From Flavobacteriales bacterium (GTDB lineage: Bacteria > Bacteroidota > Bacteroidia > Flavobacteriales_F > PHOS-HE28): 64,000 bases of DNA. Below the pieces are notes generated by a model. That model was not told the DNA's origin, did not search any database, and saw only the letters and a program-made list of their open reading frames with translations. Every line of letters begins with the position of its first letter. Position 1 is the stretch's first letter. The position numbers and the translations under genes were made by a program. The stretch lies in NCBI GenBank assembly GCA_017987895.1, contig JAGNSU010000005.1, forward strand, positions 1-64,000. The letters are read 5' to 3'. This document shows, piece by piece, positions 1 to 16,083 of the stretch.

Positions 1-2431
1 GGCCCGCGCTGCGCAGGTTGTCGTTCATCGACGCGGTGCCGGTGTTGTAGGGGCCTTCCAGGAAGACTTTCGGAGCGACTTGCACATTGGGCTGGGTAAG
101 CGTGGGGATCAAGCACCAGCTGTTCAAGGTGCCCTCATCGGTGGTGGCCACATCCTGCACGCGCAGGATCCAGGAGCCCTGGAACACCTGTCCATTAAAC
201 CCGGCGAGCGAAACATCCGGGATCACGAAGAGGTTGTTCATCGGGCAAATGGCCCCCACGGCGCCGTTCGCGCCGGTCTGGTCGAACTCCACGATGATGT
301 TGTCGTTGTTGGTACACTTGGCCGCATTGATCAGGTTGATCACCGTACCGGTAGGACTCTCCAACGACACGCGCACATCGGCGGTGTAGGTGTGGGAAAT
401 GTTCACGTACACATTGAGGTCGGTGAGCGTGGCACCGCCCTGCGAGGGCACGACGATGGTATTGCTCGCGGTGGTATTGTCCAGGATGTTGGAAGTAGCC
501 GTGCTGTTGAAACTGGTGCAACCAACACCGGGCACATTGCAGTTGGCCACGATGCCGGTAAAGCTCTTGTCGCAAGAGGAGAACAGGTTATGCAACAAGG
601 AGACGGTCACCGCGGTCCCGCTCGGATAGGGGCCATAAGGACCGTAGGTGCCGGTGGCGTTCGCCGTGCCCACGGTAACGGGCGGATTAGCACCAGCGCC
701 GTCCGGATCAATCTGGATGGTGAGGCTTGTGGCACTTCCCATGGACGTTACATCCACGTTCACGTTGAACTGGGTCGTGTTCGAGCAAGTGGAGCTCACC
801 TGGGCCGAAGGCTGGGTGCATAGCGGCGGAGTGAAGGAGAACTCATAGATCCGCGTGGCCCAGTTGGTCGCAGGGTTGTATTGCGCCGTGCCCCAGAAAC
901 TACCCGTGGAAGGATCCACATCCAGCGAGTTGTAATCGCCGTAGCGATTGCTGCTGTTGGGGTTGGTGCCGGCTACAATGGTGGTCTCCGCGAAGGTCAT
1001 TTGACCCAATGCATCGCTGGCGCTGCGACCGGTGTAGCGGATGCCGGGATACACGCTGCTGCTGCTCACGTTGTAGGCCAGTCCGATATCACCGTTGGCG
1101 TTGATCGCGATATGGCCCATCCATCGGCTGGTGGCATCAGGCGCATACGTACCCTCCTGATGGATGGCCCAGGGGTTGGCGATGCCGATGCGGCGCAATT
1201 CGTACCACCGTATGGCGCCCTGGTTGCCTCCCACATCGGTGACGTGGTTGCACACGATGGCCTCGTGCGTGCCGAAATTGCGGTACTGCGCCCGGTTCAT
1301 GATCACTTCGCGCAGCGGATCCAGATTGGTAGTACTGCCTGGTTGATCGATGCACGAGAACGACGTGTAGCCGCATAGGTCCGTGTCGAAGGCGGTCGTG
1401 GTCATGAAACTGGGGCCTGCCAGCACACTGTTCGCCGGGGTGGTGAAATCCAGGGTGAGGGTCCAGATCTCCAGGCGATCGTTCGGGATCGTGCCGCTCC
1501 AGCCGTCGTCGGCCATGCGCATCACCATGGCGGGCGCACCGGCGGGCGGCGGGGCTCCACCGCTGAAGTTGATCGGGGTGGTGGCCTGGAAACCTATGCT
1601 GGGATAATCCGGCGTGGTGAAGCGCTGCGAGGTGGCGCTCAAGCCAGCCAACATCCGGGTACGGTCCAGCGCATAGATCGGGCACCCGGTGCCTTCATTG
1701 CTGGTGATGAGGTAGGCCGTGCTCCACACGGCGTACTTCGGATAATCGGGGAAACTGGGGGCGGTGAAACTGTACGCGTACCAAGTGCCCAGGGGATCGG
1801 CGGTGGTGCTCACGCACATCACCAAGCGGTTGCCGCTGGCGCTGAACTCGCTCATCAACCAGCGGTCCGCCAACGCATCGTACAGCACGATGGGATCACC
1901 GGCCCCACTGTAGGAGGTGATGCCGCCGATGGCATTGATGAAGTTGTCCAGGTAGGTCTGCGCACCCAGAGCCGCGCCGTTCTTGTCGAAGATCCTGAAG
2001 TACGAACCGGAGCCTCCATTGATCATCTGGATCACATGGTTCGGCCCCACGGAAAGGCAGGGGTCCGAAGGGTTGACACCGGTGTTCCCGATGCCGTTCG
2101 TGGTGAGGTCCAATGCACGGCCCGTGCTCCGCGTGCCGTGGGTCTTCTGCCAGACGGGATCTTCCCCGAGCGGTAGCGCCTTGGGGTTCACCTGCGGGTG
2201 CATGCGGCTCTCCTTGGTACCCGGTGGCTCTGGTTTCACCAGCCATCCGTGCTCGTCGCGCACCACTTCGTCGGCGAACACCCGGGTGCTGTCCCAATCG
2301 CGGTAGGCCGGGGTTTCGCCGAGGAGCTCGAGCTGAAGCACTTCGGCATTGTGGAGTTGGACGTACTCCTGAGCATTGGTGAGGCCGGTGATCAACAGGA
2401 GCGAAAGAAGAGCAAAGCGCGCACGGAACAT
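1..2431 (-). CDS. Secreted P-domain protein, probable T9SS cargo (C-terminus beyond window)
   Basis: Reading leftward from the ATG at 2431 the frame stays open to the window edge (about 810 codons seen). Residues 1-21 form a signal peptide (basic MFRAR, a leucine-rich core, then NAQ). The next part contains a motif CLSVGPNHVIQMING common in Bacteroidota surface proteins with propeller-like folds. Residues about 655-775 match a proprotein-convertase P domain (beta-sandwich; DLNVYVNISHTYTADVRV and a closing GSWILRVQDVA segment), which usually sits near the C-terminus of secreted proteases or adhesins. No protease catalytic domain is visible in the part seen. Export by T9SS is inferred from the family; the sorting domain itself would lie outside the window. 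Exact function unknown. Confidence 0.8.
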   Translation of the reverse strand, partial: MFRARFALLSLLLITGLTNAQEYVQLHNAEVLQLELLGETPAYRDWDSTRVFADEVVRDEHGWLVKPEPPGTKESRMHPQVNPKALPLGEDPVWQKTHGTRSTGRALDLTTNGIGNTGVNPSDPCLSVGPNHVIQMINGGSGSYFRIFDKNGAALGAQTYLDNFINAIGGITSYSGAGDPIVLYDALADRWLMSEFSASGNRLVMCVSTTADPLGTWYAYSFTAPSFPDYPKYAVWSTAYLITSNEGTGCPIYALDRTRMLAGLSATSQRFTTPDYPSIGFQATTPINFSGGAPPPAGAPAMVMRMADDGWSGTIPNDRLEIWTLTLDFTTPANSVLAGPSFMTTTAFDTDLCGYTSFSCIDQPGSTTNLDPLREVIMNRAQYRNFGTHEAIVCNHVTDVGGNQGAIRWYELRRIGIANPWAIHQEGTYAPDATSRWMGHIAINANGDIGLAYNVSSSSVYPGIRYTGRSASDALGQMTFAETTIVAGTNPNSSNRYGDYNSLDVDPSTGSFWGTAQYNPATNWATRIYEFSFTPPLCTQPSAQVSSTCSNTTQFNVNVDVTSMGSATSLTIQIDPDGAGANPPVTVGTANATGTYGPYGPYPSGTAVTVSLLHNLFSSCDKSFTGIVANCNVPGVGCTSFNSTATSNILDNTTASNTIVVPSQGGATLTDLNVYVNISHTYTADVRVSLESPTGTVINLINAAKCTNNDNIIVEFDQTGANGAVGAICPMNNLFVIPDVSLAGFNGQVFQGSWILRVQDVATTDEGTLNSWCLIPTLTQPNVQVAPKVFLEGPYNTGTASMNDNLRSAG

Positions 2432-2644: not shown

Positions 2645-2713
2645 TTACTCCCCTGCCGCGATCCGCACTCCCTCGCTATGCGATGAGAACTCCGGCGCGT
2701 AAATACACGTCGC
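2645..2713 (-). pseudogene. Duplicate of the alpha-2-macroglobulin gene 3' end (last 22 codons plus stop)
   Basis: Read on the minus strand this stretch encodes YAPEFSSHSEGVRI preceded by ATCI and followed by AAGE and a TAA stop. The complete gene at 8968-15075 ends with the same core, preceded by AMCM and followed by VVGE and a stop. Counted by eye, 18 of 22 residues and 59 of 69 bases agree, with a perfect 23-bp run (2679-2701 versus 9002-9024). Similarity stops sharply at 2713. It is either the relic of a second copy or one boundary of an inserted segment: the five-gene operon lies exactly between the two copies, which have the same orientation. Confidence 0.8.
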
Positions 2714-2776
2714 CCGGAGGCTGCGTAGCAAAGCGCGCTGACCGGGGTCGCAATGGTGTCCCGCCGCCATCCGAAC

Positions 2777-2798
2777 ACCCCCCGATTTTCCGGGGGGT
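2777..2798. other. Strong GC hairpin upstream of the five-gene operon
   Basis: An 8-bp perfect stem (ACCCCCCG / CGGGGGGT) closes a 6-nt loop (ATTTTC). No T-tract follows on either strand, so it is not a classical intrinsic terminator. It lies 86 bp before the operon's first ATG, between the duplicated fragment and the first gene, and may be a boundary structure or a regulatory hairpin. Confidence 0.5.
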
Positions 2799-2884
2799 AC
2801 GGATCTATTACGCGACCATGCCGATACATTCGATCCACATCACTCTTTGAAGGCGAATAGTTCACACGCTATCCCACTGATAAC

Positions 2885-5800
2885 ATGAAAAAGAAAGCCA
2901 CACCATTATCGGGTCCATCGAAGAAGAAAGGCCCGGCGACCACCACAAAAGGATCTTCGGGCGGGTCCTTGAAAAAAAGCGGGACCCGAACCAAGGCGGG
3001 CAGCACTGGCGCGAAGGCTCGCAAGGGGCATCTTACTCCAGTGCTCGGAACACAAGGTGTTCGTGCCGCAACAGGGAACGACCGGTTGACACGCGCATTG
3101 GAGACCATCACCTTCACGAACAAGCGGGCCTTGGCGCGCACGATCAAAGGAGGCGAATTCCGGCACGTTGAACTCGCACCGGCGTTCCGCAGCGTGTTCC
3201 GCCGTAACAAGGACCACGCGGCCCGCCTGGCCGAGACCTATGCCACCAGCCTGAGCGATCGGCTCGCGCACAAGGAGCTCTTCCAACAAGCGGCACAGAT
3301 GCGTTCGCCCGAACGAAGAGCTCTTATCCTTGGCTATCGGAAGGCGGGACAAACACGGGGCGTGGTGCATGCCATCAGCCAGCTACCGCGTGCCCAAAGT
3401 CGGCGATTGATGCGCGACCTGGTGGTGAAGGAAGAAGACAAGAGCATCGACCAAAGCGCTCTGCGCGAAGTGCTCTATTGGCTTCGTGATGCGGGAGCGG
3501 AAGTGACCCGATTGAAAAAGGCGGACGGTGCGGCACGACGCAAAAGGGAGGACACGGACGAAGCGGTGGTGGAGTTCTTCGAGGACGTGGCCGATGAGAT
3601 CGCCAGCGCGATAAGCTCTGTGGTCGATGCGATAGAGGACATCGTGGGGGCCTTCGGTGAACTCCTTAGCGATGTCATCACATGGGCGGCCAATGAAGTG
3701 GCCAACCTCGTAACGGCTCTGTTGGAAGCAGGCAAGACCGTCTTGGACTTGGTGGTCTCCGCATTGGAGGTTGGAGCTGAACTGGTGAAGAAGATGATCC
3801 AGGCGCTGACCACGGTGGGAACGGCACTGTTCGCCATTCTGGATGCCGCGTTCACGCTCGCGAAAGATGCGCTGGTGACGGTCCTGAAGGCGATAGACAC
3901 TTTGGGGCGTACGCTCGGAGAATTGCTGGCGTACCTGGTGAATAAGACCGCCGACGTCCTTCGCCGCGCGGTCGAAGCGCTGCTCGAGATCGGGAAATCC
4001 ATCGGCAATATCCTGGCACAAGCCTTTGAGTTCGGCTTCACCTTGGTCCGCGGGTTCGTGCAGGCGTTGCTCGCCATAGGCCGTACCGTAGCTACCATTC
4101 TCGCGGCGTTGGTGACACGGCCCCTTTCTGTTTTCGACACGGCGATCCGCGCATTCCTCGACCTAGGTCGGTCCTTGTCGAGCATCTTCAACGAAGTGCT
4201 GACGGCCGGTCTGGACCTTGTCATGGAAGTGGCCCGCGCAGCGGTGCGCGCCGGAGCGGCGCTCATTGACCTTACCCAGTTCATCGCGAGTGCGGCGGTG
4301 GACGTGGTGACCAAAGTATTGGAGGGGGTGCTGGCCGCCGGCAAATTGTTCATCGATGTGGTGACGACCCTCGCGCAGCATGCCTTGGCCGCGGTGCAAA
4401 AGGTGGTGGCCGCCTATTTCGCGTTGGGCAAGTCGCTCCTCGGCCTGCTCAAGGATGTGTTCACCTTGGGCATGGGCTTGTTGAAAGCGGTGGTGAAGGC
4501 CGCTTTCGCATTGGGCAAAACCGTGCTGGAGTTCACGCGTTCCATGGTGGCGTTCACCTATCGCGTAGCCGCTCGTTTGGTGGAAGCCGCTTTGGAGGTG
4601 GGCACCGCGGTGGCCAAGATCCTGGAGGCGGTGGTAGGCGCCAGCTACTTCGTGTTCCGCAAGATCGTGAACGCTGTGCTCCAGGCCTTGGGCCCCGTAG
4701 GGGACATCCTGGGATTCTTGCTGGACCGGGGAGAGGACCTCGCCTCCGCGCTATGGCGTGAAGCGGCGCTCGCGATCCGGTTCGTGAAGGACGGGGTTGT
4801 GGAGATCCTCGATTGGGCGGCCGCTCAGACCGATGCCATCCTCGAAAGGACGATCCAACTCTGTGAGGATGTGGGTGCCGCGATCACGGAAGTGATCGAC
4901 TGGGCCATCGCCCGCGGGCAGGATACCCTCGAGTTGCTCGGTGGACTGTGGGAACGCGTGGGTAACTCCATACAATACGCGCTCAACTACCTCAAGACCG
5001 ATTTCCTCCCCGGCATCGCCAAGTTCGTCAAGGGTGCGCTCAGCATCGGCTTCGAACTGGCCAAGCTCGTGGTCTGGACCGTGGGCAAGGCCTACGAAGT
5101 GGCTCTGGAGGTTGTGCGCGGGGCGCTGATGGCCGGTGTGATCCTGATGGAACTGGTGATCGAATCGGTGAAGCACCCGGACCAAGTGGTACAGAACCTC
5201 GTGCGGGCGGCACGCCAGTTGGGCAACACTGTGAACACCGTAGTACAGGCGTTCGTGGATGCGGGCGAGGAGTTCCTGGACGAACTCGTGCGCACGTTCG
5301 TGGCCATCGGCGAGAACATTAAGGACATGTTGCTGGCCGTGCTGGAGATCTCCGCAGGCCTGCTCGGGACCGTGGTCATGCTCCTGATGAACATGCTCAA
5401 CGGGTTCCGGCCGCTCACGGCTGCGGAACGCGCCGATGCGCAGTTGGTCTTTGAGGATTCCGTGGACCTGGACCAGGTATACATCGCCACGGAGTCCATC
5501 ACCAACAGCATCATCTTCGGTGTTCAGGACTTCTTCAATGGACAACCTGCTGAATCTCGTGCCTTCGTCACCGGCAACCTCATCAATTTCAATGCGGGTG
5601 ACCCGCCTCATGATCGGCCAACGTTGATCCATGAAATGACCCATGTATGGCAGAACCAGAACGTGGGACCCATCTATCTGGCGCACGCCGTGGCCGATCA
5701 GGCCATTCTCGGTTCGGAGCCGGCATACAACTACGGCTACGATCATCCCAGCGCGAGCATCAATGTCCCAAACGCCAAATACGATGGTGGTTCGATAAGC

Positions 5801-6004
5801 GAGCCGCAAGGTTCGATCAAAGGGGAAGGAGGTGCTGCGGTCCTGGACGCCGCGACCGACCTGATGGATTTCGGTCCGGAGCAACAGGGGCAGATCATGA
5901 TGCAGTTCTTCGTGCGACAGGTGTTGTTCGGAGAAAGCGGTGCAACCCTGGCACCTTGGGAACGCCATGTCGAGTTCGCACGGAACAATCCGCAAGTTGC
6001 CTGA
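2885..6004 (+). CDS. Giant helical 29-residue-repeat protein with C-terminal HEMTH zincin/DUF4157-like domain
   Basis: 1039 aa, starting at the ATG at 2885. Residues 1-55 are a Lys/Thr/Gly-rich, probably disordered basic tail. Residues about 249-828 consist of twenty consecutive 29-residue units without indels, of the form A-L-L-x-I-G-K-[ST]-h..; for example ALLEIGKSIGNIL (nt 3977) and ALLAIGRTVATIL (nt 4064) start exactly 87 bp apart. They are strongly amphipathic and rich in Ala, Val and Leu. Residues about 850-1039 hold HEMTHVWQ (H916, E917, H920), resembling the HExxH-containing DUF4157 (eCIS core) or related zincin domains. No signal peptide is seen. It heads a five-gene operon whose next gene overlaps its end. 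The assignment to DUF4157 is by motif only; peptidase activity and any link to contractile injection systems are inference. Confidence 0.75.
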   Translation: MKKKATPLSGPSKKKGPATTTKGSSGGSLKKSGTRTKAGSTGAKARKGHLTPVLGTQGVRAATGNDRLTRALETITFTNKRALARTIKGGEFRHVELAPAFRSVFRRNKDHAARLAETYATSLSDRLAHKELFQQAAQMRSPERRALILGYRKAGQTRGVVHAISQLPRAQSRRLMRDLVVKEEDKSIDQSALREVLYWLRDAGAEVTRLKKADGAARRKREDTDEAVVEFFEDVADEIASAISSVVDAIEDIVGAFGELLSDVITWAANEVANLVTALLEAGKTVLDLVVSALEVGAELVKKMIQALTTVGTALFAILDAAFTLAKDALVTVLKAIDTLGRTLGELLAYLVNKTADVLRRAVEALLEIGKSIGNILAQAFEFGFTLVRGFVQALLAIGRTVATILAALVTRPLSVFDTAIRAFLDLGRSLSSIFNEVLTAGLDLVMEVARAAVRAGAALIDLTQFIASAAVDVVTKVLEGVLAAGKLFIDVVTTLAQHALAAVQKVVAAYFALGKSLLGLLKDVFTLGMGLLKAVVKAAFALGKTVLEFTRSMVAFTYRVAARLVEAALEVGTAVAKILEAVVGASYFVFRKIVNAVLQALGPVGDILGFLLDRGEDLASALWREAALAIRFVKDGVVEILDWAAAQTDAILERTIQLCEDVGAAITEVIDWAIARGQDTLELLGGLWERVGNSIQYALNYLKTDFLPGIAKFVKGALSIGFELAKLVVWTVGKAYEVALEVVRGALMAGVILMELVIESVKHPDQVVQNLVRAARQLGNTVNTVVQAFVDAGEEFLDELVRTFVAIGENIKDMLLAVLEISAGLLGTVVMLLMNMLNGFRPLTAAERADAQLVFEDSVDLDQVYIATESITNSIIFGVQDFFNGQPAESRAFVTGNLINFNAGDPPHDRPTLIHEMTHVWQNQNVGPIYLAHAVADQAILGSEPAYNYGYDHPSASINVPNAKYDGGSISEPQGSIKGEGGAAVLDAATDLMDFGPEQQGQIMMQFFVRQVLFGESGATLAPWERHVEFARNNPQVA

Positions 6005-6917
6005 GCGGCGACTCCTTCTAGCGGCGCCCAGGTCCTCCTTGGTGGATCTGGCGCCGTTACTGGAGGCCTACGCACGTAGCCACATCCGTGTGGAGGTGTA
6101 CGCCTATGGGAGCCGCATGCCGGATATGGAGCGGTTGGGCTCGGAGCGGACCGATATCGATGCCATGCTCTTGGCCGGCCCCCGCCGGTTCGCGCCGAGC
6201 AGTGTGTTACCCGGCCCATGCATCCGCACGGCGGGAGGCCGGTCCGTTCCGGCAGCGTGGCTCCCGATCACGGACAGCGCGGCGCTGTCTCGTTTTGCAG
6301 GCTGCGTGGCGCGCGTGCACGGTCGAGCGCGGCAGCAGACCGCCATGGCCTTACTGGGCCAATGGCATCCCAGGTACGAGCATCTCTCCGACCGCATTGA
6401 AAATTCTCTTCCCAAGAAAGTCCGATCGTTCCGATGGACGAGCGACGTGATCGGCAGAGAGGAAATGATCAGCGCACTAGGTTCTGGTCTGGGTGTAGCG
6501 ATGTACCTGGGGCATGGGCGGCCGAAGGGATGGGTGGGCTACTACGGCACGCGGAGCCACCATTTCGCAACGTTCCATGGCGAGCCCATCGGAGGTCTTC
6601 TTTCGCTCTGCTGCAACACCGCGAGCCGCAGGCGCACCGGTCTTTCCTTCGCCGAAGCGTTGCCGTTGATGGGTGTAGCAGCCTGTTCCTTCGGAGCCGT
6701 TTCGGCCACGTTGCATACCGACAACACACGATGGGCCGTGAGGCTTTGCGACGGACTGGCCCGGAAGGCCGCGTCCATTGGCGAACTGGTGGTCCTGTCC
6801 ACACCTCCGAACGCCACGGCCTCCGAACACTACCGGCTCATCGGCGATCCCCTGGCACCGGTAGCCGCTGGCCGATCGGGCGCACGAAAAGCGGCTACGG
6901 TGCTTACTTATCCTTGA
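5967..6917 (+). CDS. C25/caspase-fold peptidase-like protein without secretion signal
   Basis: 316 aa from the ATG at 5967; an in-frame ATG at 5940 would add nine residues, and both overlap the upstream gene (end 6004). The C-terminal half has the landmarks of the gingipain/C25 and CHAT caspase-like fold: a hydrophobic strand ending in the His motif YLGHGRPKGW, then LLSLCCNTAS carrying the candidate nucleophilic Cys about 32 residues later, and a closing YRLIGDPLAP that resembles the conserved YNLLGDP end of C25 peptidases. Known C25 enzymes are usually exported by T9SS, but this one lacks both a signal peptide and a sorting domain, so it should be cytoplasmic. It ends 1 nt before the acyl carrier gene. 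The fold call is moderate; activity and substrate are unknown, with the large repeat protein as an obvious candidate. Confidence 0.65.
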   Translation: MSSSHGTIRKLPERRLLLAAPRSSLVDLAPLLEAYARSHIRVEVYAYGSRMPDMERLGSERTDIDAMLLAGPRRFAPSSVLPGPCIRTAGGRSVPAAWLPITDSAALSRFAGCVARVHGRARQQTAMALLGQWHPRYEHLSDRIENSLPKKVRSFRWTSDVIGREEMISALGSGLGVAMYLGHGRPKGWVGYYGTRSHHFATFHGEPIGGLLSLCCNTASRRRTGLSFAEALPLMGVAACSFGAVSATLHTDNTRWAVRLCDGLARKAASIGELVVLSTPPNATASEHYRLIGDPLAPVAAGRSGARKAATVLTYP

Positions 6918-6918
6918 G

Positions 6919-7167
6919 ATGATCGAAGAGTCCGCGATCGTCGACTGGCTCCGTCAGGAACTTCGGACCGTGAAGCCGAAACTCGCGCGCCATCCGGAGC
7001 TAGGGGAGCATTTCAAAACCGACCTCGCCTTCGATTCTCTCGAGCTTGTGGAATTGGTGGCCCGGATCGAACAGCGCTATGGCCTCATGATCCCCGATAG
7101 TGCCTTGCCCGCTTTCATCTCCTTGGAGGCCACGGCTAAGTACATCGCCGGGCGCCTCGCCACATGA
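6919..7167 (+). CDS. Acyl carrier protein
   Basis: 82 aa, a small acidic four-helix carrier. The phosphopantetheine attachment motif FDSLELVEL places the modified serine at Ser40, followed by the typical helix-III region GLMIPDSALPAF and an LEATAKYI end. It starts 1 nt after the peptidase-like gene and overlaps the ketosynthase start (ATGA at 7164-7167), so the three are translationally linked. The location, beside a ketosynthase pair rather than fabD/fabG, suggests a dedicated carrier and not the housekeeping AcpP. No phosphopantetheinyl transferase is nearby, so the cell's general one would have to activate it. Confidence 0.9.
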   Translation: MIEESAIVDWLRQELRTVKPKLARHPELGEHFKTDLAFDSLELVELVARIEQRYGLMIPDSALPAFISLEATAKYIAGRLAT

Positions 7168-8318
7168 ACCCGGATCGCGGAACCATCGTGATCACGTCAA
7201 TGGGCGTTGTTTCGCCATTGGGGAACACGCCTGAGGACCTTTGGGAACGGATCCTCAGTGGCACTTCATCCGCACAGCCATGGCCGGACCTTGAACGTGA
7301 AGGTTTCCGAAGTACCACGGCATGTCGTGTCAGCGACCTGGATACGCCGCTCCACCAACGCGGACGCCTGCTCGCCTTGGATGCCGCAAAGCAAGCAGTG
7401 GACGGGCTCGGATGCCCACTCCCGGAGGACCTTGGTGTTTTCATCGGCAGCACGCTCGGCGAGAGCAGCGCGTTCGAGGATGCCGCGCGAGGTGGTCCTT
7501 TCCACGGTCACGAACACACGGTCAGCGCGTTCACCGGTGCTCTCCGCGATCACTTCGGGGCGATGGGACCGTCACGTTCCATCGCCACGGCATGTGCTGC
7601 GGGGAACTACGCCGTCGGTGCCGCGGTTTCAGCACTTCGCAATGGGCATACATCCATGGCCATGGCGGGCGGTGTGGAGCCGTTCTCCCGCATCGCCATG
7701 CTAGGGTTCAGTAGGTCCCGTGCGATGGCGGAACACCAGTGCCGGCCGTTCGATGCGGAAAGGAGCGGCATGTTGCTCGGAGAAGGTGCGGCGATCTTCA
7801 TCCTGGAACGGGCCAACGACGCTCTGGCGCGCGGAAAGCGGCCGCTCGCCGAAGTGGTATCGCTCGGGATCACCTGCGATGCTTACCACCCCACCGCTCC
7901 GGAACCAAGTGGAAGTGGCATGCTCCGCGCCATGCGTGAGGCGTTGCTCCTGGCCGGTACCGATCCTTCGCAGGTGGATTGGGTGAACGCTCATGGAAGT
8001 GGAACGTTACTCTCGGACAGCGCCGAGGGTCGCGCGCTGCGTTCGTTGTTCGGTCCACGCCTACCCTTGATAAGCGGCAGCAAGGGTGCTTTGGGTCACG
8101 CCCTTGGTGCCTCCTCCGCCATCGAACTCGTCCTTTGCGTGCAAGGCCTCCTTCAGCAGATCGTTCCCCCTACCGCCGGGCATCGCCAGGTGGATCCAGC
8201 GATCGACATCGCCTGCACAACGGCAGCGACCCCGCATGAGGTCAACGTAGTGATGAACAACGCGTTCGCCTTCGGCGGTATCAATTCGACCCTGCTCTTG
8301 CGCCGATGGATGGACTGA
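7164..8318 (+). CDS. Beta-ketoacyl-ACP synthase (FabF/KAS II-like)
   Basis: 384 aa with a complete thiolase-fold ketosynthase. Catalytic Cys144 lies in TACAAGNYA, His277 in NAHGSGT and His312 in KGALGHALGAS; the glycine-rich end NAFAFGG is present. It condenses acyl groups with malonyl-ACP, presumably using the carrier protein encoded just upstream, with which it overlaps by 4 nt. It is slightly shorter than FabF (about 410 aa). The next gene encodes a truncated ketosynthase-like protein, an arrangement recalling ketosynthase/chain-length-factor pairs of aryl polyene and type II polyketide loci, but no ketoreductase, dehydratase or acyltransferase is nearby. Confidence 0.92.
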   Translation: MNPDRGTIVITSMGVVSPLGNTPEDLWERILSGTSSAQPWPDLEREGFRSTTACRVSDLDTPLHQRGRLLALDAAKQAVDGLGCPLPEDLGVFIGSTLGESSAFEDAARGGPFHGHEHTVSAFTGALRDHFGAMGPSRSIATACAAGNYAVGAAVSALRNGHTSMAMAGGVEPFSRIAMLGFSRSRAMAEHQCRPFDAERSGMLLGEGAAIFILERANDALARGKRPLAEVVSLGITCDAYHPTAPEPSGSGMLRAMREALLLAGTDPSQVDWVNAHGSGTLLSDSAEGRALRSLFGPRLPLISGSKGALGHALGASSAIELVLCVQGLLQQIVPPTAGHRQVDPAIDIACTTAATPHEVNVVMNNAFAFGGINSTLLLRRWMD

Positions 8319-8947
8319 TGCACATAGCCGCTTCTGGCCATGGCCAGGTGAATGGAGTGGACGAGCCTGGAACGATGGCCGCTATCGCAGCGCAGGTGCA
8401 TCATCTATTTCACGACGATCCCTTTCCGGACCGCACCGGCCTGATCGTTGTTTCGTCCAACGCGGGCGTACGCCCCGCGCTTCAGTTCTGGTCGCGGGCA
8501 CTGGAACAAGGATTGGCGTTCGCAAGTCCGGAGCTCTTTCCGTGGACACTGGCTAATGCACCTTGTGGTTGGCTGGCGCGACACTTCCGGATCACCGGTC
8601 CGAATTTCACGTTCATGGGGAACGCCGCTGCATTGGCCGCTGCTATGGATGAAGCTGCGGACCTCCTTATCCCAGGCCGCATGCATGACGTGGTCGTGAT
8701 CGCGCTGGATAGTGGCGATGCCGCACAGGCACCGACCACGTTCGCCGGGATCCGCCTCACCAATGAGGCCACCGGTCCTGCTCTGCGACATGCCAGGGAT
8801 GGGACCACCACTGGCCAGCCAGAAGGATCATCAAGCGCATTGCTCGGCGCGATCATCACATCACTTCAGGCCGGCATCGAACATCGGGTCGTGCTCGACG
8901 AGAGCGTCCTTGATCTAGTGCTCGGTATCGGGACATCGACTCGTTGA
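8318..8947 (+). CDS. Truncated ketosynthase-like protein (chain-length-factor-like)
   Basis: 209 aa from the ATG at 8318, which overlaps the upstream stop (TGATG); an ATG at 8306 would add four residues. It resembles the N-terminal half of ketosynthases (Ketoacyl-synt_2 type): an LIVVSSNAG strand, then HFRITGPNFTF followed by GNAAALAAAMDEA where active enzymes carry the nucleophilic Cys. No Cys is present at that position and the C-terminal histidine half is missing, so it cannot be a complete condensing enzyme. Family members act as non-catalytic partners of a full ketosynthase, for example in aryl polyene pathways. It ends 20 bp before the convergent alpha-2-macroglobulin gene. Confidence 0.7.
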   Translation: MHIAASGHGQVNGVDEPGTMAAIAAQVHHLFHDDPFPDRTGLIVVSSNAGVRPALQFWSRALEQGLAFASPELFPWTLANAPCGWLARHFRITGPNFTFMGNAAALAAAMDEAADLLIPGRMHDVVVIALDSGDAAQAPTTFAGIRLTNEATGPALRHARDGTTTGQPEGSSSALLGAIITSLQAGIEHRVVLDESVLDLVLGIGTSTR

Positions 8948-8967: not shown

Positions 8968-9036
8968 TCATTCCCCCACCACGATCCGCACACCCTCGCT
9001 GTGCGATGAGAACTCCGGCGCGTACATGCACATCGC
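8968..9036 (-). repeat. Right-hand copy of the alpha-2-macroglobulin 3'-end repeat
   Basis: These are the last 22 codons and stop of the intact alpha-2-macroglobulin gene. They match 2645-2713 at 59 of 69 positions counted by eye, in the same orientation. Together the copies enclose the five-gene operon. Confidence 0.8.
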
Positions 9037-12000
9037 CGTGGTGATCCCATTGCTGAAGTCGCCCGCATGCGTGACGCGCAGGGTGTACTCGAACAGGTGC
9101 GTGCCGGCCGGGATGCGGTCGAAGAAGAAGTTCATGCTCGCATCGCGGATGCTCTGGTAGTACCCGAGCCCACCCTTCCACTGGTAGCCGCTCAAGGCCT
9201 CGGTGGGTTCCAGACCCGCGGCGCGCAGGTCTTTCAAGTGGACATAGTCCACCGGTCGATCGGTGCGTAGCTCGATGCGGATGGTGAGTTTGTCGCCCGC
9301 TTTCAGCTTTCGTGTCCCGTCCAATTCCACGAGTTGCGGACCCGCATCCGTCTGCTCAGTGAGCATCACCTGCTTCTTGATGCGGAACGGACTTTCATGC
9401 TGCGTGATCTTGTCCATCCGCTCGAAGTACTGCCAGTGCAGCGCTCCCCAACTGGGTTTGTTAGCTCCGCTGGTAATGAAAACCTCCGCGAGAGCGGGTT
9501 TGATCTCGTCCGCCGTCCAACTCTTTTCGAAGGCCCCAGTTCCTGCTTCCGCGTTCGCGGCGGGGATGGTCACATCGCCCACCTTGATCACCGGCGCTTG
9601 ATCCTCCGTGAGCCAGTCGCTTCCGGTGAGCAGCAGTGCGTAGCAGGCCTCGGCGGTGGCCTTGGTGGTCTTCCAATCGGTGGTCTGCTTCAGCTTGAGC
9701 AAATGCGTGCGCAAGGCGTTCACGCTGGCCTCATCCTTGGCCACTTCGTGGAAGGCCTCGATCATCAACGCATGCGTTTCGGTCGGGTAGCTCCACCAGT
9801 CCATGCCGCTGCGGAAGTCCTTCCAATACATGCCGAGTTCCTCGCTCTGCACGGCACGTTGGCGCACACTTTCGATGATGAGCGCCGCCGTGGTGTGATC
9901 GTTCATGCGATGTAGTAAGAGCGCGATCATCGCCTGCTCCTGCAAGCCGTACTTCAACCACTCCTTCGCGATCCGTTGCTTATAGAACTCCACGGCGGTA
10001 TTCGTGCCACCGGTGATCGGCCAACGACGGAAGAAGGAACGCGCGTACAGGTATTGGATCTCGCCGTAGCCCGGCATGTACTTGTCCAGGTCGTCCTTCT
10101 TCAGGTCGCGCTGCAGGCGCTTGAACTCGCGGTCCACGTCCGTGTCCAACCACTGCACGGCGCTGCGCAACATGCGCTGGGTTTCGCCATCCTCGCGCAG
10201 GTCCGCCGCTTTCAATTGTTCCAAGTGACCGAGGCCGGCCACGATGTGCTGCGTGATCCATCGGCTCTCCCGCATGCCGGTCCACCAGGGCCAAGCGCCG
10301 CTCGGCAGTTGCATGTCGCGCAACTTCTTCAGCGCGGTCGCTTCTTCAGCGGCCATGCGCTTCAGGTCGAAGAGCAGGGCGATGCGTTCCTTCCGTTCGC
10401 GATCGTTCCGCGCGTTCACCACCCAGGGGGTTTCGGCGAGAAGGATGTTCTTCAGATCCTGGTTCTTCTCTAACGCGCTCGCGAAGGCATCCGGTCCAGC
10501 GGCCTTCCACTTCACGAAGACCTTCTTGATCGCCGGGCGTTCCTCGACGATGTGCGTGGCGAGACGGTTCGCATAGTAGCGGCTAAAGACCTGCTCCGCG
10601 CATTCGTGCGGGAACTCCATCAGGTAGGGCAACGCCTGCACGGCATACCACGCGGGGTTCGGCGCGTACTCGAGCTTCAGGCTTTGGCTGCGCAATGTGG
10701 TGCTCGTGTTCGCTTTCAACTTCTCCAATGTGAAGGTCTTCGTGCCCGCTTTGCTGATCCATAGCGGAAGGCTCTCGGTGACGAGCAACTTGTCGGTCAA
10801 CACCGGGAGCATGCGCTCTTCGCCATCCGCAGCGACGATGGTGCTCATGGGTCCCGCCTTGCTGCGCGCGGTGATGCGCACGCCCGCGGCATCCACGCCT
10901 TCCGGCACGATGACGGACCATTGCACCACTGCGCTTTCACCCTGCGCGGCGATGAAGACTTGATCGCCGACCTGCACGCCGAACGACTTGTTCAGCGATG
11001 CGTTCGTGAACGGATCGAAAAGCTCCAACGTCGCAAGGCCTTCCGCCCTTCCCGCTTCCACCAGGTTGATCTTTGCAGTGAGCGCGATGCGATCACCTGA
11101 GCGCAGGAAGCGCGGCAGGTTCGGCACCACCATCAACGGTTTTTGTGTGATGGTCTCCTTGGTGAACTGGGCCAACATCAGGTCCTTCGTATGCCCCACG
11201 CCGAACACGCGCCAACGCGTGAGCGCATCGGGTGTGGTGAAGCGGAGCACGAAACTGCCGTCGCGCTCGGTGAGCAGGTCGGGGAAGAAGAAGGCGGTTT
11301 CGCGGAAGTCGGAGCGGATGGTTGGTGGTTGTTGGTTGTCAGTTGGCGGTGGAGCGGGATCCTCGGGTTTGGCTTCGCCCTTCTTGCTCGGTTCTTCCTC
11401 GCCCGCCTTGTCGCCATCCATGGCTGGCACCATCCCTGGTACCGCCTGCGCAGCGTTCCCTTCGCGCAGCACGGTTGCCCCATCCATCATCATCATCACC
11501 GACTCCGCTCGCGCACCCCGCAAATACATGTAACCGTAAGGCTCGGCGAAGCCATACGTGTTCAGGAACGGGTAGGTACGCGATGCGCCCGGTGGGCCTT
11601 GCACTTCGCGGTAGAGCATCTGGCCATATGCCGCACCGAAGGGCTCCGCGCGCGACCAACCGAAGCGTGCATCATTGCGGCCCCAGATGCTCATGCTCCA
11701 GTCGTGCGGCACGAAGTGATCGAGCGATGCATCGTACATGCCCGCGAGCAATTGCGCGGTGACCTGTTCGCCCTTCGGCCCTTTCAGCTTCAGGCGCCAC
11801 TCTTCCTTATCACCGGGTTGCAACTTGTCGCGGAAGCTCATCCACTCCACCTGCAGTTGCTTGTTCGTCCAGGGCACGTCGATCCAGATCGTCTCGCGAT
11901 GCGCGCGGCCACGCTCCACGCATAGCAGATGCACGGCGAAGCCGCCACGATCGCTTTCGAGCACGGGCAGTTCGACGCGCTGTTGCCCCTTGCTCAGGAT

Positions 12001-15000
12001 GAAACGTCGGCTCACCGCGATCACGCCGTCGCGTTCCACTTCCATCAGCACGCGCGCATCTGGCAAGACAGAGCTAAGCAGGAGCACCGCCTTCTCGCCG
12101 GGTTCACAGGTGGTGATCACCGGTTCCGAATGGAAAGCCGACACGAAGCCCGTGTTCTGGATCGCGGTGTCGTAGACGCTGATCACTTTCCGCGCCTTCA
12201 CGTCGCGGCCATCGGCGTCCTTCACGGTCACTTCGATCGCATAGCTGCCGACCGGCCACGCGTCCACCCCAGCGAGCGATAATGGTTTGCCGTTCGCGCG
12301 ATGTTGCGCGCGTTGGAACACGGTGTTCGCTACAGGCCAGGAAAGCGGATCATCCTCGTTGGCGTAGACATCCTGCGGGAAACGTTGGGCATGTTCCTCC
12401 TGGGTGAGCACAAAGCGATCGGGGCGGTCCCACAAGCGATCGCGCAAGGGGATCGAGGGTACCTGAAGTTGCGCGATGGTGATGTCCATCGGCACATCCA
12501 CCTCTTCGCCGTTCAGGTTGCGCACGCGCACATCGAGGCTGTCGGTGCGTTCGCGGTCGATCGCCTCGCCAACGTTCAGCGCGATATCGATGCTGCGGTA
12601 TGCGAGGTTGAGGCTCGTGGTGCCCTGTTGCGTTTCACCGGTGATGTCGGTGGCATTGGCCTCCACTGTGTAATAGAAGGTGGGATCCGCATCGCGCGGG
12701 AAAGCGATGTCCGCCAATGCGGTGAACGTGATCGAGAATTTCCCTTGTGCATCGCACGCGCTCGTGCCGCTCGCGATCTCCGTTTCCTGTCCCCACGGCA
12801 ACCCGCGCCATCCGAAACCGCACCACCACGGCATCCGTGCGCCGCGCTTCACCGTCCACTGCACCTGGGCACCATCGAGCGGAACGCCGGCATAGCTCTT
12901 CGCCACACCGCTCACCAGCACTGGCTGCTCCAACTTCGGTTGCCCGGAGATGGGATCGAAGACCACTTCGAAAGTGGGCCGCTTGTACTCTTCCACCTGC
13001 ACGGTGCGGCTGCCATGTTGCTCTTCGATGCGCATGGATCCGGTGAGCGCACCCACCGGCGTTTTGAACGAGCCTTTGAACGATCCGAAGGCATCGGTCT
13101 TCACCTTCAGCGAATCGATCAACTCGCCATTCACATCATAGAAGTTGACACGCGTCGCATAGCCAGCTTTCACTTCCGTGGTCTTGCCACGTTTCACCGA
13201 AACGATGCCCTTGAAGAAGACCTCCTGCCCGGGCCGGTATATCGCGCGGTCCGTGAACAGGAAAGTGCGCAACGAATCGACCACACCTTGTTCACCACCC
13301 CACCACGCATAGCCGTGGTTTGTGGTCCACTGATCATCGCCCTGCTCCAAGCGGATCGCATAGCGACCGTTCGCACCAAGCAGTTTCGGCGAAGGCCGTC
13401 CCTCCACATCGGTGATCGACTCGCCCATGCGCAACAGTTCTTGCGCGCGCTGGTTGTCCGCGAAGAGGATCACCTTCACGCCGGGTTGTGGCACGCCGGT
13501 CCAGCGGTCGAGGACCAAGAGATCCAACTCGTTGCGCACACGACGCTCCACCAGGCTGAGGCGCGTGACCTGCACGGGTGTATGGGCGATCACATCGCGT
13601 TTCGCGGTGAATTCCGCTGCATTGCTGATCAAGATGGAATACCGGCCCAGCGGCAATGCATCGATGGGAAGTTCGGTGAGATGCTCGTTCAGATCACCGT
13701 CGTCGGGAAGATCCACGCTCCATTCGCGCAGCGGCTTCTGCTGCGTGAGCCAGAGGCCGTGGTCATGGTCCCAGCGCCGTTCGCGTCCCAATTCTTCGGG
13801 ATCCTTCACCACGCGCAACCAAACGCGCGAGGTGTTCGTGTAGCGCACCGCGACCTTGAACGCCTGGTCCGGCGGGGTGGCGGTCTCGCATTGCACGTTC
13901 ACCGTGGGTTGCTCTAGGGCGAACTTCAGCGCGGCGGCCTGTTGCGCACCGAACGAGCCGGGGAACTTCGCGATCGCCTCGTTGCAGAGATCGCGCGCGG
14001 TGCGTTTCTCGTTCTTCCAGGCATCGCCCGCCAGGCGATCGTACTTCACACTTTGCTCGTGGTGCCATTGGGCGATCACGGTGGTCACCTCACTCCAACA
14101 GCTATCCTCGGGCACGCGCGTGCGCAACTTCTCCAGGGCCGCGAGGTAGAGCGAGTCCTTGTCCGGTAGCACGCTGTGGGCATGCACATGAGCGAGGCGC
14201 GATAGGATCGCATCCACCAGCGCATCGGGACGATCGTCGCTCATGTGCGCCAACTCCAATTGCTGTTGCAAGCGCAAGGCCTGGAACTCCCAGGCGGTGC
14301 TGTCGCGATGCCGCAGCGGCTTGTACACGAACTCCTCGAACAGGGCGAACTGCCGCGGATCGTCCAAACGGAAACGCCAGGCGGGTTCGGCGAGGCGGGT
14401 CTCGGAATTGGCGAATAGCGCTACCGCGCGTTGGCCGACCACATCGAACACCGTGGGTCGCAGGGCGATGCCCGTGCGTTGCTGCGCTGTAGGCAGGTTC
14501 GGATCGAAACGCAGCAACTCGCCGAGGTCACCGGTGGGAATGCGCAGCAAACTGTCGCGCGGTTCCAACGAGGCCTGTGCGTGCAACAACACGCGCGCCA
14601 TGAAGGCGCGTTGCGACCAGGTGGCCGGGTCGGCGGCATTGTCTTCCAAGTTGGTACGCTCCAGGATCCTCCAGCGGTCCTGCTGGTAGGTGTTCCACCA
14701 ACCTTCCGCCAGCACACTGTGCAGCAAGGGCACCAGCGGCACTTCGTTCCCGGCGGCGTGCAAACTGTCCGTGGTGCGCTCCAGTTCCGCTAGCACCATG
14801 TAGGCATCCGCGCCGGTCATTTGCTTCAACTGCCCGCGAAGCAGGTAGGCCTTGAAGCGCGCGCGCCAATCCTCGGGCGCGGTCGCCTCTTGCAGAATGC
14901 GCTCCGTGCCTTCGAGCGCGGTGGCGTACTGGCCGATGCTCATCAAGCTGTCCACACCGGCCCAGCGCGGGTCGGCGCTGCGCATCGGCGCCTCCACCAC

Positions 15001-15075
15001 TTGCTTGTTCGTACCGCAACCGGGCACCAAGGCGATCACCAACATCGCCCAAGCCATCGTTCTCACAAAGCGCAT
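8968..15075 (-). CDS. Alpha-2-macroglobulin family lipoprotein with thioester motif
   Basis: 2035 aa. The N-terminus is a lipoprotein signal with lipobox VPGC (ALVPGCGTNKQ), so it should be anchored in the envelope. Macroglobulin-like domains follow, with the family hallmarks YRPGQEVFFKGIVS and VEEYKRPTFEV, then a Pro/Glu/Lys-rich linker (around nt 11300-11420), and after FFFPDLLTERDGSFVLRF the complement-like half. The thioester motif CAEQ is intact (Cys1492 within FPHECAEQ), suggesting covalent trapping of foreign proteases, as proposed for YfhM-type bacterial macroglobulins. Unlike E. coli yfhM no pbpC lies next to it. It is transcribed toward the five-gene operon and ends 20 bp from it; its last 69 bp are duplicated at 2645-2713. 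Confidence 0.93.
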   Translation of the reverse strand: MRFVRTMAWAMLVIALVPGCGTNKQVVEAPMRSADPRWAGVDSLMSIGQYATALEGTERILQEATAPEDWRARFKAYLLRGQLKQMTGADAYMVLAELERTTDSLHAAGNEVPLVPLLHSVLAEGWWNTYQQDRWRILERTNLEDNAADPATWSQRAFMARVLLHAQASLEPRDSLLRIPTGDLGELLRFDPNLPTAQQRTGIALRPTVFDVVGQRAVALFANSETRLAEPAWRFRLDDPRQFALFEEFVYKPLRHRDSTAWEFQALRLQQQLELAHMSDDRPDALVDAILSRLAHVHAHSVLPDKDSLYLAALEKLRTRVPEDSCWSEVTTVIAQWHHEQSVKYDRLAGDAWKNEKRTARDLCNEAIAKFPGSFGAQQAAALKFALEQPTVNVQCETATPPDQAFKVAVRYTNTSRVWLRVVKDPEELGRERRWDHDHGLWLTQQKPLREWSVDLPDDGDLNEHLTELPIDALPLGRYSILISNAAEFTAKRDVIAHTPVQVTRLSLVERRVRNELDLLVLDRWTGVPQPGVKVILFADNQRAQELLRMGESITDVEGRPSPKLLGANGRYAIRLEQGDDQWTTNHGYAWWGGEQGVVDSLRTFLFTDRAIYRPGQEVFFKGIVSVKRGKTTEVKAGYATRVNFYDVNGELIDSLKVKTDAFGSFKGSFKTPVGALTGSMRIEEQHGSRTVQVEEYKRPTFEVVFDPISGQPKLEQPVLVSGVAKSYAGVPLDGAQVQWTVKRGARMPWWCGFGWRGLPWGQETEIASGTSACDAQGKFSITFTALADIAFPRDADPTFYYTVEANATDITGETQQGTTSLNLAYRSIDIALNVGEAIDRERTDSLDVRVRNLNGEEVDVPMDITIAQLQVPSIPLRDRLWDRPDRFVLTQEEHAQRFPQDVYANEDDPLSWPVANTVFQRAQHRANGKPLSLAGVDAWPVGSYAIEVTVKDADGRDVKARKVISVYDTAIQNTGFVSAFHSEPVITTCEPGEKAVLLLSSVLPDARVLMEVERDGVIAVSRRFILSKGQQRVELPVLESDRGGFAVHLLCVERGRAHRETIWIDVPWTNKQLQVEWMSFRDKLQPGDKEEWRLKLKGPKGEQVTAQLLAGMYDASLDHFVPHDWSMSIWGRNDARFGWSRAEPFGAAYGQMLYREVQGPPGASRTYPFLNTYGFAEPYGYMYLRGARAESVMMMMDGATVLREGNAAQAVPGMVPAMDGDKAGEEEPSKKGEAKPEDPAPPPTDNQQPPTIRSDFRETAFFFPDLLTERDGSFVLRFTTPDALTRWRVFGVGHTKDLMLAQFTKETITQKPLMVVPNLPRFLRSGDRIALTAKINLVEAGRAEGLATLELFDPFTNASLNKSFGVQVGDQVFIAAQGESAVVQWSVIVPEGVDAAGVRITARSKAGPMSTIVAADGEERMLPVLTDKLLVTESLPLWISKAGTKTFTLEKLKANTSTTLRSQSLKLEYAPNPAWYAVQALPYLMEFPHECAEQVFSRYYANRLATHIVEERPAIKKVFVKWKAAGPDAFASALEKNQDLKNILLAETPWVVNARNDRERKERIALLFDLKRMAAEEATALKKLRDMQLPSGAWPWWTGMRESRWITQHIVAGLGHLEQLKAADLREDGETQRMLRSAVQWLDTDVDREFKRLQRDLKKDDLDKYMPGYGEIQYLYARSFFRRWPITGGTNTAVEFYKQRIAKEWLKYGLQEQAMIALLLHRMNDHTTAALIIESVRQRAVQSEELGMYWKDFRSGMDWWSYPTETHALMIEAFHEVAKDEASVNALRTHLLKLKQTTDWKTTKATAEACYALLLTGSDWLTEDQAPVIKVGDVTIPAANAEAGTGAFEKSWTADEIKPALAEVFITSGANKPSWGALHWQYFERMDKITQHESPFRIKKQVMLTEQTDAGPQLVELDGTRKLKAGDKLTIRIELRTDRPVDYVHLKDLRAAGLEPTEALSGYQWKGGLGYYQSIRDASMNFFFDRIPAGTHLFEYTLRVTHAGDFSNGITTAMCMYAPEFSSHSEGVRIVVGE

Positions 15076-15237: not shown

Positions 15238-16083
15238 ATGGATTCAAGTAAGTCGCACAGCTTCGATGATGGGTCAGAGATCCATCACTATATCCCTAAG
15301 TACTTCATTCGCGGCTTCGCCGATGAGAAGGGAATGGTTTGGATGTATGACAAGAGGACAGCACGATTTCACGGATCCAAAGCACCGAAACAGGTGTTCT
15401 ACGAACCATCGGGTAACGCTGCGTACTGGGGAGCCCAACGCAATACCCTTCCTGAGATGGCCTTCAAACAAGTTGACGACCTTCAGGCAAACCGGATTAA
15501 GGACTTCCTCGCCTTACCACACGAAGAGGTATCCGAGAATCTTCACGGATATCTGTCACAGCATATGATGCTCCAGTACCTGAGGGTGCCGAAGAACAAA
15601 GGCAAGTTCGAGGAGCTCTATCGCAACATGCCGAAATGGTCAGCGATTCTTCCTGATCGTCCGCCGCAGTCACTTACAGCTCCGAATGACGGAACTTTCA
15701 AGCGCACCAGTCGGGCATTTCTTTCAGACATGTTCTTACGAGCACTCTTAGAAATCGACAAGGGGCCTTGGAGGTCAAGGATCTATGAACATGGGACGGA
15801 CGGCATCCTTGTGCTAACCGATAACCCTGTTGTCTATTTGAACGACCCAATCACCACCCTCGATTTTATGGGCCCTTGTATGATGTCCGTATCACAAAGG
15901 CGCCTCTATGTTCGAGGCGACTTCCCAGTTCCAATCACACCCCTGGAAACATTGGTCCTGTACAACGTGATGGCAATCGAGCAAGCTGAAAGGCTTATCT
16001 GCGCGTCAAGCCAACTCTTTTTGCGGCAAGCCGTTGAGGCTTGGACCATCGCCAGAAAACTAGTCGCGGAACGTTCTAGCTGA
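15238..16083 (+). CDS. DUF4238 domain protein, probably acquired
   Basis: 281 aa. The N-terminal IHHYIPKYFIRGFAD followed by VWMYDKRT is the signature of DUF4238, a family of unknown function found sporadically, often near mobile or defence genes. The central ILVLTDNPVVYLND and late PLETLVLYNV segments also fit. No signal peptide or membrane segment is visible. Its base composition is visibly more AT-rich than the flanking genes and its codon choice differs, which together with its isolated position points to horizontal acquisition. The function cannot be inferred further. Confidence 0.8.
   Translation: MDSSKSHSFDDGSEIHHYIPKYFIRGFADEKGMVWMYDKRTARFHGSKAPKQVFYEPSGNAAYWGAQRNTLPEMAFKQVDDLQANRIKDFLALPHEEVSENLHGYLSQHMMLQYLRVPKNKGKFEELYRNMPKWSAILPDRPPQSLTAPNDGTFKRTSRAFLSDMFLRALLEIDKGPWRSRIYEHGTDGILVLTDNPVVYLNDPITTLDFMGPCMMSVSQRRLYVRGDFPVPITPLETLVLYNVMAIEQAERLICASSQLFLRQAVEAWTIARKLVAERSS

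What the first reader, a model, noticed from the sequence alone, without database searches (positions are those of the whole stretch)
2885..8947. Five-gene operon joining a giant repeat protein, two peptidase-like domains, an acyl carrier and a ketosynthase pair
Seen: five plus-strand genes with 1-nt gaps or overlaps, so one transcript. They encode a 1039-aa helical repeat protein with HEMTH, a C25/caspase-fold protein with His and Cys in place, an ACP with Ser40, an intact ketosynthase and a cysteine-less ketosynthase half. Known: ketosynthase/chain-length-factor pairs build acyl chains; C25 and zincin domains are peptidases. Inference: a dedicated acyl chain made on the ACP may modify the repeat protein, which is then matured by the peptidase. 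I know of no described system with this combination.
Basis: partly seen in the sequence, partly recalled or inferred. Interest (0 to 1): 0.88.

Follow-up and report, generated by a model that had tools for sequence, protein, structure and literature searches.

The report
Peptidase effector gene cassette with acyl-chain enzymes
A Bacteroidota genome (by its relatives, perhaps Flavobacteriales) carries a recently inserted five-gene unit that couples a very long rod-shaped, toxin-like zinc peptidase with a second peptidase of the gingipain/separase type and a minimal acyl-chain-making trio, a combination found in no other genome sampled here.

Summary
Five tightly packed plus-strand genes lie at 2885-8947, and every catalytic residue checked is in place. 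ORF1 is best read as effector-like. About 620 residues form an amphipathic helical rod (gapless 29-residue repeats, hydropathy period 3.625 = 29/8), capped by a zinc peptidase domain of the VgrG2b/Tpe1 kind (HEMTH plus the third ligand Glu999). The same cap ends eCIS cargo proteins in two other Bacteroidota genomes. ORF2 is a full peptidase C25 domain without an obvious signal peptide; its model best matches gingipain K and separase. ORF3-5 are an ACP, an intact ketosynthase and a half-size chain-length-factor-like partner, as in ApeO-ApeC.

The block is an insert. A 66-nt repeat of the neighbouring macroglobulin gene's 3' end flanks it, the empty site is seen in congeners, and 44 congeners lack ORF1 and ORF5. 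No other genome sampled carries the set. ORF2 has no match in 395 Bacteroidota, and eight other loci with the zinc-peptidase domain have no ACP, ketosynthase or C25 gene nearby. The acylation-plus-maturation model is therefore plausible but has no comparative support. No sheath or T6SS gene was found in this genome. Verdict: new variant of a known effector kind, with an unexplained acyl-enzyme attachment.

The parts
2649..2714 (-). Left copy of a 66-nt direct repeat: leftover 3' end of the macroglobulin (A2M) gene, still reading ...YAPEFSSHSEGVRIAAGE*
   Evidence: 88% identical to 8972-9037; found as a protein match
2778..2799 (.). GC-rich hairpin ACCCCCCG-ATTTTC-CGGGGGGT between the left repeat and ORF1
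   Evidence: read directly from the sequence; function unknown
2885..6004 (+). ORF1, 1039 aa: Lys-rich tail (aa 1-65), helical domain (66-215), amphipathic rod (216-835), zinc peptidase domain (836-1039)
3683..4726 (+). Twelve gapless 29-residue repeats (aa 267-614), continuing in degenerate form to about aa 817
5390..6001 (+). VgrG2b/Tpe1-type metallopeptidase domain; HEMTH at 5630-5644, third ligand Glu999 at 5879-5881
   Evidence: 6h56 by sequence and by fold; alignment A1; active site per PMC6899460
5967..6917 (+). ORF2, 316 aa: peptidase C25 domain without obvious signal peptide; His183 (6513-6515), Cys216 (6612-6614)
6919..7167 (+). ORF3, 82 aa: acyl carrier protein, Ser40 at 7036-7038
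7164..8318 (+). ORF4, 384 aa: intact ketosynthase (Cys144, His277, Lys307, His312)
8318..8947 (+). ORF5, 209 aa: half-size ketosynthase-like protein without active-site Cys (chain-length-factor-like); alternative start 8306
8972..9037 (-). Right copy of the 66-nt repeat: present 3' end of the A2M gene
8968..15075 (-). Neighbouring A2M (bacterial alpha-2-macroglobulin) gene, the insertion target; not part of the unit
   Evidence: conserved in congeners
2..2431 (-). Neighbouring P-domain protein gene on the other side; not part of the unit
   Evidence: directly next to A2M in four congeners

Best explanation
A horizontally acquired effector cassette. SHOWN: one block of five packed genes, inserted at the 3' end of the A2M gene. 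SHOWN by sequence: ORF1 is a long amphipathic helical rod ending in a zinc peptidase domain of the VgrG2b/Tpe1 kind, with its ligands intact; ORF2 is a complete C25 peptidase domain, probably cytosolic; ORF3-5 are ACP, ketosynthase and half-size partner. INFERRED: ORF1 is a toxin-like effector whose rod inserts into, crosses or lies along a membrane and carries the peptidase to its substrate. INFERRED: ORF2 cuts ORF1, probably freeing the peptidase cap or the rod. INFERRED, weakest: the ORF4-ORF5 pair makes or transfers a specific acyl group on ORF3, which is used to lipidate ORF1 or otherwise make it membrane-active. Delivery is unknown: no sheath or T6SS gene was found in this genome.
For: Zincin: 6h56 (VgrG2b effector domain) is the only PDB hit by sequence (E 0.008) and the only credible one by fold (prob 0.99). 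H, E, H and the later E are invariant in alignment A1, matching H935/E936/H939/E983 of VgrG2b. The same cap plus a helical stretch stands behind an eCIS core domain (E 1e-33), next to a CIS tape-measure gene, in G115 and G266. Rod: 29-residue gapless repeats and coherent 3.625 period. ORF2: Pfam C25, invariant His/Cys against other C25 domains, gingipain K then separase as best folds. KS pair: ORF4 and ORF5 each best match a different chain of one PDB entry, 9s5h. Insertion and somewhat different codon use.
Against: The set is adjacent in no other genome sampled. Eight other loci with the zinc-peptidase domain lack ACP, ketosynthase and C25 genes nearby, so the acyl part is not a general companion of such effectors. 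No acyltransferase, reductase or thioesterase is in the unit. No sheath or T6SS sheath gene was found in this genome, which is 92% complete. No immunity-like gene is seen. ORF1 lacks the N-terminal eCIS core domain of the eCIS cargo proteins. Structure models are of modest confidence (pLDDT 59 and 57).
Confidence: 0.4

Rival explanations
1. Two modules on one insert: ORF1-2 act as effector and protease, while ORF3-5 make an independent small acyl product (a minimal type II PKS like the condensing core of aryl polyene or cispentacin/coronafacic acid clusters), using host fatty-acid enzymes for the rest.
For: ORF3-5 resemble known biosynthetic trios: ApeO-ApeC has a half-size CLF, AmcB/F/G share ACP, KS and a motif-less partner; ORF4 groups with aryl-polyene-type KSs; a full cluster of that kind exists in a congener (L151).
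Against: Genes are tightly packed with ORF1-2 and lie in the same insert; no ligase, reductase, dehydratase or thioesterase in the unit.
Confidence: 0.25
2. A protease-triggered suicide or defence module: ORF2, a clan CD protease like some that cut bacterial gasdermins, cleaves ORF1 and frees a membrane-active rod or the peptidase cap, killing the host cell; the ACP-KS trio senses or supplies acyl chains.
For: Clan CD protease next to a large hydrophobic amphipathic protein; island-like insertion absent in congeners. The parallel with bacterial gasdermin operons is recalled, not tested.
Against: No PADLOC defence family hit; no gasdermin fold tested; no sensor domain seen.
Confidence: 0.15
3. 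ORF1 is not a toxin but a lipid-coating or scaffold protein (apolipoprotein- or phasin-like) that carries the acyl product of ORF3-5; the peptidase domains process it.
For: Phasin_2 just above its cut-off; coherent 3.625-residue period as expected of a lipid-facing amphipathic helix.
Against: The zinc-peptidase cap is shared with VgrG2b and eCIS cargo; such periodicity alone draws helical families, since the reversed rod matches tape-measure profiles too.
Confidence: 0.12
4. Chance assembly or a decaying island with no joint function.
For: Combination unique in the sample; ORF5 is half-size.
Against: All five reading frames and all catalytic residues checked are intact; overlapping starts; half-size CLFs are functional in ApeO-ApeC.
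Confidence: 0.08

Closest known systems
VgrG2b C-terminal metallopeptidase / Tpe1-Tpi1 T6SS effector family (PMC6899460)
   Same: Peptidase domain: HExxH motif, later Glu ligand, best PDB match by sequence and fold
   Different: No VgrG spike, no T6SS found in the genome, no immunity-like gene; longer insert between HExxH and Glu; fused to a 620-residue rod
eCIS cargo proteins with eCIS core (DUF4157) domain
   Same: Two such proteins in other Bacteroidota end in the same zinc peptidase and carry amphipathic helical repeats
   Different: ORF1 has no N-terminal eCIS core domain above cut-off; no sheath gene found in the genome
Tape-measure-related CIS effectors Tme and Sle1 (PMC11126660, PMC13277306)
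   Same: Long helical, partly hydrophobic protein with a C-terminal functional domain
   Different: Homology to tape measure proteins is not shown here: the reversed rod sequence matches them too; no CIS sheath gene found
Peptidase C25 (gingipains); separase
   Same: Catalytic His and Cys, whole-domain alignment, best fold matches
   Different: Free-standing, no obvious signal peptide; the C25 proteins compared here are long and apparently secreted
ApeO-ApeC (aryl polyene KS-CLF, PMC8358021) and AmcF-AmcG with AmcB (cispentacin, PMC10698177)
   Same: ACP, intact KS and a partner lacking the active-site Cys; half-size partner as in ApeC
   Different: No other biosynthetic genes; ORF4 is a long branch not clearly within either family

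Membership tests
VgrG2b/Tpe1 metallopeptidase effectors | HExxH plus downstream Glu ligand | tested here: met
   H916/E917/H920 and E999 invariant in A1; VgrG2b residues
VgrG2b/Tpe1 metallopeptidase effectors | Sequence/fold relation to the VgrG2b domain | tested here: met
   6h56 E 0.008, Foldseek prob 0.99 but E 0.016 and TM 0.41 on a pLDDT 57 model
VgrG2b/Tpe1 metallopeptidase effectors | Adjacent envelope-targeted immunity protein | tested here: not met
   none of the four following genes is of that kind
T6SS or eCIS cargo | Delivery machine in the genome | tested here: not met
   no PF04984 and no PF05943 in a 92% complete genome; incomplete assembly and divergent systems not excluded
eCIS cargo (DUF4157) | eCIS core domain | tested here: not met
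   only a sub-threshold match on the zincin itself (16.4 vs 22 bits)
Tape-measure-related effectors | Homology of the helical region to phage tape measure proteins | tested here: inconclusive
   PHROG hits to E 9e-16, but the reversed sequence also hits (4.7e-12) and the shuffled one does not
Peptidase C25 | Profile match with catalytic His and Cys | tested here: met
   Pfam PF01364 26.7 bits vs cut-off 23; H183 and C216 invariant
Peptidase C25 | Proteolytic activity | not testable with these tools
   needs an assay
Type II KS-CLF pair (ApeO-ApeC kind) | Intact KS next to half-size KS lacking Cys, plus ACP | tested here: met
Aryl polyene cluster | Full set of KR, DH, ligase, second KS | tested here: not met
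   absent from the unit
Site-specific integrated element | Repeat flanks and own integrase | tested here: inconclusive
   66-nt flanking repeat at a gene 3' end and an empty site in congeners; no integrase among the five genes

The most novel reading that the evidence does not exclude
An effector class in which a dedicated ACP-ketosynthase-CLF trio supplies or transfers a specific acyl group onto a giant rod-plus-metallopeptidase protein, which a co-encoded C25 protease then cuts to activate it.
Probability: 0.2. Interest if true: 0.8.

Novelty: new variant of a known kind. Interest (0 to 1): 0.55.

Why it matters
If the acyl trio acts on the effector, this would be lipid activation of a large bacterial protein by a dedicated polyketide-type condensing pair, paired with a gingipain/separase-like processing protease, with all parts in one 6-kb cassette. 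Even without that link, it shows a VgrG2b-type peptidase cap on a separate rod protein in a genome where no injection machine was found, and marks a gene 3' end that has been duplicated around inserts in at least two species.

Tried and rejected
1) Orthologous operon elsewhere: not found. KS scan of GTDB contigs gave 24 KS loci, none with ORF1/ORF2-like genes (the ORF2 query was in a wrong frame, but searching 15 of those genomes with the right ORF2 also gave nothing). ORF2 in 395 Bacteroidota: only this genome. ORF2 in 284 genomes of the phylum of a Polyangiaceae MAG: only distant C25 domains. Plasmids, phages and viral contigs: nothing. 2) Direct homology of the rod to phage tape measure proteins: not accepted as proven, because the reversed sequence also matches. 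3) Phage or plasmid origin: no support. 4) Known anti-phage system: no PADLOC hit. 5) G055 hit to the rod (L004): only helical-composition similarity, not pursued.
Full report
OBSERVATION. The five plus-strand ORFs are real. ORF1 2885-6004 (1039 aa), ORF2 5967-6917 (316 aa), ORF3 6919-7167 (82 aa), ORF4 7164-8318 (384 aa), ORF5 8318-8947 (209 aa; or from 8306). Junctions: 38-nt overlap, 1-nt gap, 4-nt overlap, 1- or 13-nt overlap. A single transcript is inferred from this spacing; the promoter/terminator scan found nothing above expectation.

ORF1. Pfam gives a marginal Phasin_2 hit and a sub-threshold eCIS_core hit on the C-terminal region. PDB sequence search finds one chain, 6h56, the VgrG2b effector domain (E 0.008); both share HEMTHVWQ and a later EQQG stretch. 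In VgrG2b, H935/E936/H939 and E983 form the zinc site (PMC6899460). In alignment A1 of ORF1 with six other domains, the two His, the Glu between them and the later Glu (ORF1 E999) are invariant. The AlphaFold2 model of this domain is of modest confidence (pLDDT 57, pTM 0.61), yet its only credible PDB match is again 6h56 (prob 0.99, E 0.016, TM 0.41).

The same domain in other genomes. In G115 and G266 it ends proteins that carry an eCIS core domain (E 1e-33) and 11/22-residue helical repeats, and lie next to a CIS tape-measure gene. In G236 it follows a helical stretch (L111); in congeners G009 and G044 it follows a short one (L115, L116); G270 has a short form (L114). Two further weak hits came from the phylum of G490. 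None of these eight loci has an ORF2-, ORF3-, ORF4- or ORF5-like gene within the fetched flanks.

The rod. Residues 267-614 are twelve 29-residue units with no gap, and the pattern continues in weaker form. Identity at lag 29 is 0.222; 2000 shuffles reached at most 0.139. Hydropathy has one sharp period, 3.625 = 29/8 residues, over 620 residues. PHROG tape-measure profiles match (best 9e-16), but the reversed rod matches as well (4.7e-12) and a shuffled one does not: the match reflects amphipathic periodicity, not proven descent. Known CIS effectors Tme and Sle1 are described by their authors as tape-measure-related proteins with C-terminal functional domains; ORF1 looks like that kind without membership being shown.

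ORF2. Pfam Peptidase_C25, 26.7 bits over a cut-off of 23. Alignment with C25 domains fetched from the phylum of G490 keeps the catalytic His183 and Cys216 and covers the whole domain, including the N-terminal subdomain. The model (pLDDT 59, pTM 0.67) best matches gingipain K (E 2.4e-4) and then separase. The start shows no obvious signal peptide by eye; no predictor was run.

ORF3-5. ACP with Ser40; ketosynthase with Cys144, His277, Lys307, His312; ORF5 aligns with the first half of ketosynthases and has no Cys at the active-site position. ORF4 and ORF5 find different chains of the same PDB entry as their best match (9s5h). A half-size CLF that keeps mostly the first thiolase fold is known from ApeC (PMC8358021). 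AmcF-AmcG of cispentacin synthesis is another KS with a motif-less partner (PMC10698177), and ORF4 matches the AmcF model over its length, below its cut-off. In a 48-row tree ORF4 joins aryl-polyene-type KSs with support 94/86, but on a long branch. No close ORF4 relative appeared in 395 Bacteroidota.

INSERTION. A 66-nt direct repeat (88% identical) flanks the block: 2649-2714 and 8972-9037. The right copy is the 3' end of the A2M gene; the left copy still encodes that gene's last residues. In congeners G007, G023, G026 and G033 the P-domain gene lies directly beside A2M, with about 200 nt between, as an empty site. ORF1 and ORF5 gave no orthologue in the 44 congeners searched. Congener G019 has its own duplicated A2M 3' end about 1 kb away. 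On average the five genes use fewer GC-ending and fewer locally preferred codons than their neighbours, though the ranges overlap. No integrase is among the five genes.

DELIVERY. No contractile-sheath (PF04984) or VipB (PF05943) match in this genome, 91.86% complete. Immunity-like genes are not seen in the block.

READING. The strongest statement is that this is an effector-like cassette: rod plus VgrG2b-type peptidase, with a co-encoded C25 protease and an ACP-KS-CLF trio, in one insert. That ORF2 cuts ORF1 and that the trio lipidates ORF1 are inferences; the second is the weakest, since no other locus with the zinc peptidase has such a trio and no acyltransferase is present. The main rivals are two unlinked modules on one insert, a protease-triggered suicide module, and a lipid-scaffold reading of ORF1.

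CAUTIONS. Genome samples were partial and single-sequence queries reach only so far; absence here means absence at that sensitivity. Its phylum is taken as Bacteroidota from the character of its relatives, and any order-level placement is my inference.

Noticed in passing
window 2649-2714 and 8972-9037; L049/L066 (G019): The 3' end of the A2M gene is duplicated around an insert here, and separately duplicated in congener G019, which suggests a recurrent insertion site.
   Followed up: partly
window 2778-2799: Perfect 8-bp GC hairpin with 6-nt loop about 85 nt upstream of ORF1.
   Followed up: no
window 15238-16083: DUF4238 gene beside A2M with the lowest GC3 (0.58) of the resident genes compared, possibly another recent arrival.
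   Followed up: no
L112, L113 (G115, G266): eCIS core proteins with tryptophan-rich 11/22-residue helical repeats and a VgrG2b-like zinc peptidase at the end, beside a CIS tape-measure gene.
   Followed up: partly
L115, L116 (G044, G009): Congeners carry a short protein with the same zinc-peptidase domain after a helical stretch, at another place.
   Followed up: partly
L151 (G013): A congener has what reads as a full aryl-polyene/dialkylresorcinol-type cluster with its own 220-aa half ketosynthase.
   Followed up: partly
L026:7071-9233: In a Desulfobulbaceae genome a ketosynthase and an ORF5-like half ketosynthase are fused into one 721-aa protein.
   Followed up: no
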